DNA of 64,000 bases from Pontiella agarivorans (GTDB lineage Bacteria > Verrucomicrobiota > Kiritimatiellia > Kiritimatiellales > Pontiellaceae): the NCBI RefSeq assembly GCF_034531395.1, contig NZ_JARVCO010000010.1, positions 1,178,001 through 1,242,000 on the forward strand, in the 5' to 3' direction. This document shows, piece after piece, positions 34,116 to 42,048 of the stretch. The notes beneath the pieces are model-generated. The model ran no database searches, had not been told where the DNA came from, and was given only the letters and a program-made list of their open reading frames with translations. A program made the position numbers and the translations under genes. Each line of letters opens with the position of its first letter. Within the stretch, counting starts at the first letter, position 1.

Positions 34116-35474
34116 ATGGATGCTGTGTTACTGGCGCGTATACAGTTCGCGTTAACGATCATGTTCCACTATATCTTCCCGCCGCTGACGATTGGTCTGG
34201 GCTGGATGATTTTTATGTATAACACGCGTTATCAGGAAAACGGGAATCCCATTTTCCGACAACTGGCGCATTTCTGGACGAAGGTATTCGCAATTTCGTT
34301 CATCATCGGGGTGGCAACCGGTATCGTGATGGAATTCCAGTTCGGGACGAACTGGGCCGGCTATTCGCGTTTTGTGGGGGATATCTTTGGTGCTCCGCTG
34401 GCGGCGGAGGGTGTTTTCGCCTTTTTCCTGGAATCGAGTTTCCTCGGTATTCTGCTCTACGGCCGCAAGCGCGTGTCGCAGAAGCTGTACTGGTTCTCCA
34501 GTTTCATGGTGGCGCTGGGAGCAACGATGTCGGCCTTCTGGATTGTGGTGGCCAACTCGTGGCAGCAGACTCCGGCGGGATTTGAAGTTGTCACCGAAAC
34601 TGTGAACGGGGTGGTCATTCAGAAAGCCGTACTTACGAACTTCTGGGAGGCTGTGTTTAATCCGTCCACACTGCCGCGCTACTCCCACGTCATCACCGGT
34701 GCATTGACCGTTGGCGTATTTTTCATTCTCGGTACGTCCGCCTGGCAGGTCGTGAAAGAGCGCAATGTGGAGTTTTTCCGTACGTCTATGCGCACCGCCG
34801 TTATTCCGGCGTTTATGGTGATTATGATTACCATGTTTGTGGGACATAAACACGGCCACCAAGTCGCGGAAACCCAGCCGGCCAAGCTGGCGGCCTTCGA
34901 AGGAATCTGGGAAAGCGGCCCCAACGCGCCGCTCATGCTGTTCGGTCTGCCGGATCAGGATGCCGAGAAGAACCACTTTGCCATTCGGATTCCCGGGATG
35001 GTCAGTCTGATGGTCGGCGGTCGTTTTGATACGGAAATCCAGGGGCTGAAAGACTTTCCGAAAGAGGACCGCCCGCCGGTGGCCATTTCATTCTGGGCGT
35101 TTCACCTGATGTTCTACATGGGGATGTGGATGGCTTTTGTTGCATTCATCGGCGTCATTTTCTGGCTCAACAAGAAGCTGCTCGACCATCAGCTTTACCT
35201 GAAAATCTGTGCCATCACGGTGCCGATTCCATTCCTCGCCAACGAAGTGGGCTGGGTGGCTGCCGAAGTGGGGCGCCAGCCGTGGGTGGTTTATAATCTG
35301 TTGCGTACAAAAGAAGCTGTTTCCAAATCCGTTCCGGCGGGACAGGTGCTCGCTTCCATCATCATGTTTTCCATTATCTATGCGTTGCTTTTCGGCCTCT
35401 GGATTTATCTGCTGAAAAACCAGTTTGCCAAGGGGCCCGAATCCATTGAAGCCCTTGAAGGGGAGGTTGAATAA
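34116..35474 (+). CDS. cydA: Cytochrome bd quinol oxidase subunit I
   Basis: A 452-residue quinol oxidase subunit holding hemes b558, b595 and d. It begins with MDAVLLARIQFALTIMFHYIFPPLTIGLG, including the His ligand of heme d/b595, and contains the GRQPWVVYNLLRT signature. The length points to the short Q-loop type. GGAGAG lies upstream of the ATG. It is followed by cydB with a two-base gap. Confidence 0.96.
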   Translation: MDAVLLARIQFALTIMFHYIFPPLTIGLGWMIFMYNTRYQENGNPIFRQLAHFWTKVFAISFIIGVATGIVMEFQFGTNWAGYSRFVGDIFGAPLAAEGVFAFFLESSFLGILLYGRKRVSQKLYWFSSFMVALGATMSAFWIVVANSWQQTPAGFEVVTETVNGVVIQKAVLTNFWEAVFNPSTLPRYSHVITGALTVGVFFILGTSAWQVVKERNVEFFRTSMRTAVIPAFMVIMITMFVGHKHGHQVAETQPAKLAAFEGIWESGPNAPLMLFGLPDQDAEKNHFAIRIPGMVSLMVGGRFDTEIQGLKDFPKEDRPPVAISFWAFHLMFYMGMWMAFVAFIGVIFWLNKKLLDHQLYLKICAITVPIPFLANEVGWVAAEVGRQPWVVYNLLRTKEAVSKSVPAGQVLASIIMFSIIYALLFGLWIYLLKNQFAKGPESIEALEGEVE

Positions 35475-35476
35475 TC

Positions 35477-36478
35477 ATGGAAGCATTGCAAATTATCTGG
35501 TTTCTGCTCATCGGGATTCTCGTTATCGGGTATTCGATTCTCGACGGATTCGATCTGGGCGTTGGCTTTTGGCACCTCTTCGCCAAAAAGAAAGGGGAAC
35601 GCACGGCGTTCATTCATTCGATCGAGCCGTTTTGGGACGGTAATGAAGTCTGGTTGCTTACTGCCGGCGGTGCGCTTTTTGCCGCATTTCCGCCGGTTTA
35701 TGCCACCGTGTTCAGCGGGTTTTATCTGGCGATGATGCTGGTGTTGCTTGGGCTGATCTTTCGCGCGGTGGCCATCGAATTCCGCAACAAGATTGAATCC
35801 GAAAAATGGGTGAAGGCATGGGATATTGCTTTCTCGTTCGGCTCGATTCTGCCCTCCATTCTCTACGGCGTTGCCATTGGCAACATTCTCCAGGGACTGG
35901 AACTCAACGCCATTGGTGACTATACCGGCGGATTTTTCGCCCTGCTGAACCCGTTCGCGCTGTTCTGCGGGATTGTCGGTCTGGCCATGTTTGCGCATCA
36001 CGGTGCGCTTTATCTGGCCATGAAGCTCGAAGGCGAAACAGCAGAGCGGGCCGGGAAATGGGCGCAGAAAACCTGGTATATATTTCTGTTCACCTTTATG
36101 CCGACCCTGGCTTACGGCGTTAAATTCTGCATCAGCGGGGACTACAAGTTCGTCTGCATGCTTCTTATTGTTTTCGCGCTGATCAGCAATTTCCTGGCTT
36201 TTGCGTTCAACAAAAAAGGTAAAGCCGTAGCCGCTTTTCTGTCTTCCTCGGTTACGATCGGGCTGGTTATGCTGTCCGTTGCTGCGGCGCTTTTCCCGAA
36301 TATCGTGCCGTGCACCAACGAGCCGGACTGGGGACTCACCGTTTTCAATGCGTCCTCCTCGATGCGCACCCTCGGCTGGATGCTGGGCATTGCCCTCATC
36401 GGTATGCCGCTCGTGCTGGGCTACACCTGGTTCATTCACCATGTCTTCCGGGATAAGGTAAAAGTCCATAAAGATTAA
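35477..36478 (+). CDS. cydB: Cytochrome bd quinol oxidase subunit II
   Basis: A 333-residue membrane subunit of cytochrome bd. It begins MEALQIIWFLLIGILVIGYSILDGFDLGVG, which is diagnostic. It forms a two-gene operon with cydA. No cydX-like small gene is evident before the VanZ-like gene 39 bases downstream. The cydCD transporter genes are not in this window. Confidence 0.95.
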   Translation: MEALQIIWFLLIGILVIGYSILDGFDLGVGFWHLFAKKKGERTAFIHSIEPFWDGNEVWLLTAGGALFAAFPPVYATVFSGFYLAMMLVLLGLIFRAVAIEFRNKIESEKWVKAWDIAFSFGSILPSILYGVAIGNILQGLELNAIGDYTGGFFALLNPFALFCGIVGLAMFAHHGALYLAMKLEGETAERAGKWAQKTWYIFLFTFMPTLAYGVKFCISGDYKFVCMLLIVFALISNFLAFAFNKKGKAVAAFLSSSVTIGLVMLSVAAALFPNIVPCTNEPDWGLTVFNASSSMRTLGWMLGIALIGMPLVLGYTWFIHHVFRDKVKVHKD

Positions 36479-41007: not shown

Positions 41008-42048
41008 TTATTCTAGCGGTGCTTTTTTCGGAAGCGAAGACACATCTACTTCTTCAATCCACTGTTTCAGGGCATTCCATCCCTTAAAACCTGCGATATC
41101 ATTGAAGAAACGATAGCCATCGCCATAGTCTGGATCTTTGCTGGTTTCAATAGTATCCAGTGCATCCAGATAGTTTTTTTTCCGGCAGTACTCTGCTGCG
41201 GCGAATTGTGAGATGCCTTCGTGGACCCAAAGCGGAGCATCCTCGAGTTTCGGAAAATGTTCGTGCACCATATCGTGCATCAGTTCGTGGACTGCGGCCA
41301 CCCGGAAGATCTCTTCATGCAGATGGTTTACAATATAAACAGATTCGGTTGACTGCTTTTCGTTTTTGCGCCAGCTGCCGAAAATTCCGCGTTTAACCAG
41401 CATGGTCTGGCGGCTGTAGAGTCCGCGGATGGTCACCGGTTCATCGGTTTTCCGAATGGTGCCGGAAAGCTCTTCCATCTCGGTGCGGTTTACCAGCTTC
41501 AGCTGCGGTATGGTCCGGAGCTGAAGCCCGGTCCAGGTTTCGAGCTCCCGGCGGGCGCGGTCATATTGTTCCAGCGCGGCGTCGTCTGTGTAAACCGACC
41601 AGCGGCGGCAGGTGCTGCACACGATGCGTCCGTCGCTGAGCTCAGTCGGATCTTTTGCCGGCAGGCCGCAGGAAAAGCAGGTCGGGCTGTTGCTCATGCA
41701 TTCATCGCAATAGTTGTGTCGGGTAATGCTGTAGCCTGATTCAATATGTGCTCCGCAGATTTCGCAGCGGGGCAGGGTGCTGTTGAAACACTTCTTTGAG
41801 CAATATATTTTCCCCTCGGACTCGATGTATTGGCCGTTGATGGGGCGGCCGCATTTGGCACATTTCGGCCGGAGTTTATCTACGCATTGTTGGGAACAGC
41901 AGGCGTGCCCTTCATAGTTCCAGTAGCGTCCAGGCAGGGTTTCGCCGCAGACCTCGCACACGGTCGGGTTTTCGTCCGCCAGCAGTTTTGTGCCGGGAAG
42001 CACGAACAGGATCTGCAATGCGCTTAACATGGATCGACGGGAAAACAT
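41008..42048 (-). CDS. Exported LIM-zinc-finger metallopeptidase, DA1-like
   Basis: A 346-residue protein with a signal sequence (MFSRRSMLSALQILFVLPGTKLLA). Residues 30-150 hold four treble-clef/LIM-like zinc sites (CEVCG..CSQQC, CAKCG..CSKKC, CEICG..CDEC, CFSCG..CSTC). The C-terminal half has a zincin site HELMHDMVH (HExxH) followed by WVHEGISQF with a likely third ligand Glu. LIM plus HExxH is the architecture of the plant DA1 peptidases, whose motif is AHEMMH. The predicted export suggests a periplasmic or extracellular protease. Substrate unknown. Confidence 0.8.
   Translation of the reverse strand: MFSRRSMLSALQILFVLPGTKLLADENPTVCEVCGETLPGRYWNYEGHACCSQQCVDKLRPKCAKCGRPINGQYIESEGKIYCSKKCFNSTLPRCEICGAHIESGYSITRHNYCDECMSNSPTCFSCGLPAKDPTELSDGRIVCSTCRRWSVYTDDAALEQYDRARRELETWTGLQLRTIPQLKLVNRTEMEELSGTIRKTDEPVTIRGLYSRQTMLVKRGIFGSWRKNEKQSTESVYIVNHLHEEIFRVAAVHELMHDMVHEHFPKLEDAPLWVHEGISQFAAAEYCRKKNYLDALDTIETSKDPDYGDGYRFFNDIAGFKGWNALKQWIEEVDVSSLPKKAPLE

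What the first reader, a model, noticed from the sequence alone, without database searches (positions are those of the whole stretch)
41008..42048. Bacterial, exported DA1-like peptidase with four LIM-type zinc sites
Zinc fingers followed by HELMH and a downstream conserved WVHEG give the architecture of plant DA1 peptidases, which are intracellular and ubiquitin-activated. Here a signal sequence suggests export, so activation and targets must differ. The first residues (SRRSML) may be a Tat signal.
Basis: partly seen in the sequence, partly recalled or inferred. Interest (0 to 1): 0.6.

Follow-up and report, generated by a model that had tools for sequence, protein, structure and literature searches.

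The report
Exported bacterial relative of plant DA1
A bacterium makes a small zinc-cutting enzyme of the same family as the plant growth regulator DA1, but carries it out of the cytoplasm and lacks the ubiquitin-binding parts that control the plant enzyme, so it must be regulated in another way.

Summary
Window 41008-42048 (minus strand) encodes a 346-aa protein: an N-terminal export signal with a twin-arginine motif, four Cys4 sites, a HELMH-X18-E active site (HELMH...WVHEG) and an invariant C-terminal YGxG(Y/F)R. It is under purifying selection (dN/dS 0.09). Relatives occur in 82 of 387 genomes of the phylum. On its own the window protein misses the Pfam DA1-like model, but 42 of 52 relatives match it (best 1.3e-12), so membership is shown through relatives. 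The predicted structure (pLDDT 91.5) has LIM-like tandem treble-clef fingers followed by a gluzincin domain of the M1/LTA4H type. Two corrections: the four zinc sites are not canonical LIM domains (spacers between sites 7/7/6 residues, not 2), and bacterial DA1-like proteins were already noted (Burroughs 2011, cited by Dong 2017). What I did not find described is that this branch looks exported: 49 of 52 members have a hydrophobic N-terminus, with a Tat-type motif in 7 of 8 genus members. The genome has TatC but no detectable DsbB or VKOR. Most likely it is an exported zinc endopeptidase acting on envelope or extracellular proteins. Substrate and trigger are unknown; activity and zinc are inferred, not shown.

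The parts
41008..42048 (-). Gene for the DA1-like exported zinc peptidase, 346 aa
   Evidence: ORF; homologues in 82/387 genomes of the phylum; dN/dS 0.09
41974..42048 (-). Residues 1-25: N-terminal export signal (n-region, hydrophobic core, ...LLA)
   Evidence: Max Kyte-Doolittle over 11 residues 2.37, against 0.1-1.6 for five presumed cytoplasmic window proteins; 49/52 members have such a segment before the first CxxC
42028..42042 (-). SRRSM, residues 3-7: twin-arginine-type motif
   Evidence: (S/T/P)RRx(F/M) in 7 of 8 genus members, not seen in the other 44 members; TatC in the same genome, E 1.2e-53
41884..41958 (-). Zinc site 1, C31-C34-C51-C55 (CX2C-X16-CX3C)
   Evidence: 44/52 members keep all four ligands
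41788..41862 (-). Zinc site 2, C63-C66-C83-C87 (CX2C-X16-CX3C)
   Evidence: 48/52 members keep all four ligands; L24e-like treble clef, rmsd about 2 over 35 residues
41698..41766 (-). Zinc site 3, C95-C98-C114-C117 (CX2C-X15-CX2C)
   Evidence: 51/52 members keep all four ligands
41608..41679 (-). Zinc site 4, C124-C127-C144-C147 with the L-x-DGR loop; the site next to the peptidase
   Evidence: 51/52 members keep all four ligands; C124 and P130 invariant
41026..41589 (-). Residues 154-341: gluzincin (clan MA) peptidase domain
   Evidence: AlphaFold2 model pLDDT 91.5; VIA-align Z 10.7 to insulin-regulated aminopeptidase, Z 10.3 to LTA4 hydrolase
41275..41289 (-). HELMH, residues 254-258: two zinc ligands and the general base
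   Evidence: H254, E255, H258 invariant in 52 members
41215..41229 (-). WVHEG, residues 274-278; E277 is the presumed third zinc ligand (HExxH-X18-E)
   Evidence: E277 and G278 invariant in 52 members; spacing counts
41110..41133 (-). PDYGDGYR, residues 306-313: C-terminal motif, presumed part of the active-site cleft
   Evidence: Y308, G309, G311 invariant, R313 98%

Best explanation
The gene encodes an exported zinc metallo-endopeptidase of the DA1-like family (Pfam PF12315, MEROPS M102), in a lineage without ubiquitin-interacting motifs. Proposed course: the protein is translocated by the N-terminal signal, probably in folded form through Tat in this genus and by Sec in relatives. The signal is removed. 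The four Cys4 treble-clef fingers each hold a structural zinc and form an arm joined directly to the peptidase. H254, H258 and E277 hold the catalytic zinc, E255 activates water, and Y308 or R313 help to stabilise the transition state. The fingers present or select protein substrates and may gate the cleft, as the LIM-like domain of plant DA1 is needed for its activity. The enzyme then makes limited cuts in envelope or extracellular proteins. Shown here: the sequence motifs, their conservation, homology to PF12315 proteins, the predicted fold, the signal-like N-termini and the presence of TatC. Inferred: zinc, activity, export, endopeptidase mode, the role of the fingers. Unknown: substrate and trigger.
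For: 42/52 family members match PF12315, best 1.3e-12; nearly all places that PF12315 finds in the phylum are genes that the window protein also finds. Invariant HExxH, EG and YGxG. Confident model with LIM-like tandem fingers (E 1.1e-5) and a gluzincin domain (Z 10.7). Signal-like N-terminus in 49/52; Tat-type motif in 7/8 genus members and TatC present. No DsbB or VKOR found, so an envelope less prone to oxidise 16 zinc-binding cysteines is plausible. Plant DA1 is an endopeptidase with HEMMH-X15-EE, and a Cys mutation in its LIM-like domain abolishes activity (PMC5322733).
Against: The window protein alone does not reach PF12315, and a profile of its genus alone does not recognise a plant DA1 fragment above shuffled controls. 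No signal-peptide predictor was available; hydropathy and motif are crude. No operon partner or substrate candidate was found. Cys4 zinc fingers are unusual outside the cytoplasm. Absence of DsbB and VKOR was tested with two models only.
Confidence: 0.7

Rival explanations
1. It is a gluzincin of another lineage (M1-like or DUF1570-like) that gained treble-clef fingers on its own, so the likeness to DA1 is convergent.
For: The window protein's only Pfam peptidase hint is DUF1570 at E 0.09; it has the X18 spacing of M1 peptidases rather than the X16 of most relatives; VIA-align's best matches are M1 enzymes.
Against: Similarity through fingers, linker, active site and C-terminal motif links it to proteins that match PF12315 above the cut-off; the window clade and the PF12315-positive clade share the Cys positions, the L-x-DGR loop and YGxG(Y/F)R.
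Confidence: 0.12
2. It is a DA1-like peptidase held in the membrane by an uncleaved N-terminal segment, facing the cytoplasm or periplasm, rather than a released exported enzyme.
For: The region before the first finger is short (about 20-45 residues) and the -3 residue of the putative cleavage site in the window protein is Leu, not small.
Against: Positive n-region followed by a hydrophobic core and often an AxA-type end just before the fingers, in most members; a conserved Tat-type motif makes most sense for export.
Confidence: 0.15
3. It is not a peptidase in practice but an exported zinc-binding or adaptor protein whose HExxH domain is a scaffold.
For: 16 cysteines with zinc-site spacing occupy a third of the protein; no substrate or partner is known.
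Against: HExxH, the glutamate and YGxG are 100% conserved over 52 divergent members while the number of fingers varies from 1 to 5, the reverse of what a finger-centred function predicts.
Confidence: 0.03

Closest known systems
Plant DA1/DAR peptidases (Pfam PF12315; MEROPS M102)
   Same: Zn-finger (LIM/LIM-like) region followed by HExxH...EG peptidase domain; relatives of the window protein match PF12315
   Different: No UIMs, no canonical LIM domain, export signal, HExxH-X18-E instead of the described HEMMH-X15-EE, bacterial, ubiquitin activation cannot apply
Bacterial DA1-like proteins such as those of Roseiflexus (Burroughs et al. 2011, as cited in PMC5322733)
   Same: Bacterial proteins similar to DA1, with CxxC/H pairs of LIM type
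   Different: Four CxxC/H pairs are described there, eight here; their location is not stated in the text I could read and their sequences could not be fetched
M1 aminopeptidases / LTA4 hydrolase (gluzincins)
   Same: Catalytic fold (Z 10.7-10.3, 11-13% identity) and HExxH-X18-E spacing
   Different: No sequence match beyond the active-site stretch, much smaller, finger arm instead of the M1 N-terminal domain
Tandem LIM proteins (PINCH1 LIM4-5, paxillin LIM2/3)
   Same: Row of treble-clef zinc fingers; best Foldseek matches of the finger region (E 2.8e-6)
   Different: No two-residue spacer within finger pairs; poor overall superposition (Z 4.5, rmsd 7.1 over 99)

Membership tests
DA1-like (PF12315 / M102) | Match to the family profile | tested here: inconclusive
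   Window protein alone: no match at E<=1. Its relatives: 42/52 at E<=0.1, best 1.3e-12, many over the curated cut-off. Membership rests on the relatives.
DA1-like (PF12315 / M102) | HExxH with a downstream Glu in an E-G motif (clan MA) | tested here: met
   H254, E255, H258, E277, G278 invariant in 52 members; spacing X18 here, X16 in 36 members
DA1-like (PF12315 / M102) | Cys-rich LIM/LIM-like region directly before the peptidase domain | tested here: met
   Sites 3 and 4 kept in 51/52 members
Plant DA1 subgroup | Ubiquitin-interacting motifs | tested here: not met
   No UIM match in the Pfam scan at E<=1; only an export signal precedes the fingers
LIM domain (PF00412) | Match to the LIM profile | tested here: inconclusive
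   Window protein: none; 11/52 relatives match, best 3e-8
LIM domain (PF00412) | Two zinc sites joined by a two-residue spacer | tested here: not met
   Spacers 7, 7 and 6 in the window protein; 5-8 (11 in five) in the family. The two-residue rule is from general knowledge.
Tat substrate | (S/T)RRxFLK-type motif before a moderate hydrophobic core, and a Tat system in the cell | tested here: met
   SRRSM, and SRRIF/SRRWF/TRRIF/PRRIF in genus relatives; TatC E 1.2e-53. Actual transport not tested.
M1 aminopeptidase | GxMEN exopeptidase motif upstream of HExxH | tested here: not met
   No such motif in the translated sequence
DA1-like (PF12315 / M102) | Peptidase activity requiring zinc | not testable with these tools
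   Needs purified protein

The most novel reading that the evidence does not exclude
DA1-type peptidases arose in bacteria as exported enzymes with a variable finger arm that serves as substrate receptor or built-in switch; plants later took one into the cytoplasm and put it under ubiquitin control by adding UIMs and a true LIM domain.
Probability: 0.25. Interest if true: 0.65.

Novelty: new variant of a known kind. Interest (0 to 1): 0.4.

Why it matters
[quoted passage not shown] An exported bacterial branch that cannot use ubiquitin gives a simpler form in which to ask what the peptidase and its zinc-finger arm do by themselves, and how the plant control was added. No DA1-type peptidase came up among solved structures by sequence; a small exported bacterial member may be an easier target.

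Tried and rejected
The alignment A1 was too diverse for that tool. tblastn against plasmids and phages found nothing. One viral contig hit (L061) is a phage-type protein sharing only a finger, HNH-like by eye, rejected. BFVD gave no match at E<=0.001. Other phyla could not be searched by family, because only handles of this phylum were available. The recalled plant fragment was checked to be a true PF12315 member (3.2e-56); a profile of the genus alone did not detect it (3.7 bits against 3.3 for a shuffle), the wider clade did weakly (13.8 against 3.2) and the whole family clearly (37.4 bits, 1.3e-8). Promoter and terminator scans gave nothing above shuffles. Burroughs et al. 2011 is not held. 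Operon partners were considered: none, since the gene stands alone between a convergent ion-channel gene and a divergent ACT-domain gene.

Full report
Observation. The ORF lies at 41008-42048 on the minus strand and encodes 346 residues. The four cysteine quartets, HELMH, WVHEG and the SRRSML start are all there as described. The gene is real: against the nearest relative (83% protein identity) dN/dS is 0.09 and 145 of 214 nucleotide differences fall in third positions.

Distribution. A search with the protein finds relatives in 82 of 387 genomes of the phylum. In its genus 8 of 10 genomes have it. Elsewhere in its class it is nearly absent: among 136 further genomes only one has a full relative (G056) and one has a finger-only match. 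None of the six listed genomes from another family of its order has it. The gene tree has two well-supported clades: one of 13 rows with the window genus and members of five other families, and one of 39 rows. Such patchiness suggests transfer or repeated loss; I did not test which.

Family. Against Pfam the single protein matches nothing above a cut-off. But a search of the same genomes with PF12315 (DA1-like) hits 36 genomes, and nearly all of the places found are genes that the window protein also finds. Of 52 aligned members, 42 match PF12315 (best 1.3e-12), 17 match Peptidase_M1 and 11 match LIM. So the window protein belongs to the DA1-like family by way of its relatives and is a divergent member.

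Active site. H254, E255, H258, E277, G278, Y308, G309 and G311 are invariant in all 52 members. The spacing is HExxH-X18-E in the window protein (11 members X18, 3 X19) and X16 in 36 others. Plant DA1 is described as HEMMH-X15-EE (PMC5322733). X18 is the spacing of M1 enzymes (general knowledge). The GxMEN exopeptidase motif of M1 is absent, and plant DA1 is an endopeptidase (PMC5322733), so I infer an endopeptidase.

Structure. AlphaFold2 on the family alignment gave mean pLDDT 91.5, pTM 0.82. Foldseek's best matches to solved structures are tandem LIM proteins, led by PINCH1 LIM4-5 at 1.1e-5. VIA-align places residues from about 153 to 346 on gluzincins: insulin-regulated aminopeptidase Z 10.7 (3.6 A over 150), LTA4 hydrolase Z 10.3. 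The finger region modelled alone again finds LIM proteins first (2.8e-6), but overall superposition is poor (Z 4.5, rmsd 7.1 over 99), and the second finger alone fits L24e-type treble clefs at about 2 A.

Are the fingers LIM domains? Not in the strict sense. The spacers between successive zinc sites are 7, 7 and 6 residues here and 5-8 (11 in five) in the family, whereas a canonical LIM domain joins its two fingers by two residues (general knowledge). Each spacer looks like the link between two LIM domains instead. The number of sites varies from 1 to 5. Sites 3 and 4, next to the peptidase, are kept in 51 of 52 members; in plant DA1 a cysteine of the LIM-like region is essential for activity (PMC5322733). 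This suggests a conserved coupling of the last fingers to the peptidase.

Export. In 49 of 52 members a hydrophobic stretch precedes the first finger. The exceptions are one borderline value (L008) and two cases where my choice of start or of first finger may be wrong (L014, L050). Five presumed cytoplasmic proteins of the window give 0.1-1.6 on the same measure, against 2.37 here. In the window genus 7 of 8 members carry (S/T/P)RRx(F/M). The genome has TatC. DsbB and VKOR were not found in a genome 97% complete, while the same searches rang in control genomes. That makes reduced cysteines outside the cytoplasm less surprising, but other oxidants are not excluded.

Neighbourhood. In the genus the order cydA-cydB, VanZ-like, outer-membrane efflux protein, ion channel, then the DA1-like gene on the other strand, then ACT-domain and DUF711 genes is kept in several genomes. 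The gene is tail to tail with one neighbour and head to head with the other, so it is probably transcribed alone. In the other clade nine genomes of four families have it divergent from HPr and, where the contig reaches, PTS enzyme I. Neither context names a substrate.

Known and new. DA1-like proteins of bacteria were reported before (Burroughs et al. 2011, cited in PMC5322733; that paper is not held), and DA1 is MEROPS M102 (PMC8643629). I found no paper in the held library that describes exported members or members in this phylum; most subscription journals are not held. I rate it a new variant of a known kind.

Limits. Zinc, activity and export are inferred. No other phylum could be searched by family.

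Noticed in passing
L073 7788-11046, L075 7414-10899, L079 7088-10371; also L016, L018, L020, L024, L028, L038: In nine genomes of four families the DA1-like gene stands divergent from, and next to, the gene for HPr and (where the contig reaches) PTS enzyme I, a pairing kept across families that the window genus does not share.
   Followed up: partly
L081 5528-7576 (-): A 683-residue protein with about eight tandem CX2C-CX3C fingers like those of the DA1-like family, no export signal and no HExxH, followed by a region without Pfam match.
   Followed up: partly
L055 196-1206 (-) and 1333-2142 (-): Two adjacent DA1-like genes in one genome, with different finger numbers (4 and 2 by pattern); further genomes of that genus show the same doubled matches.
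   Followed up: no
window 34116-36478: Genes that read by eye as cytochrome bd oxidase subunits, in a genome without detectable DsbB or VKOR.
   Followed up: no
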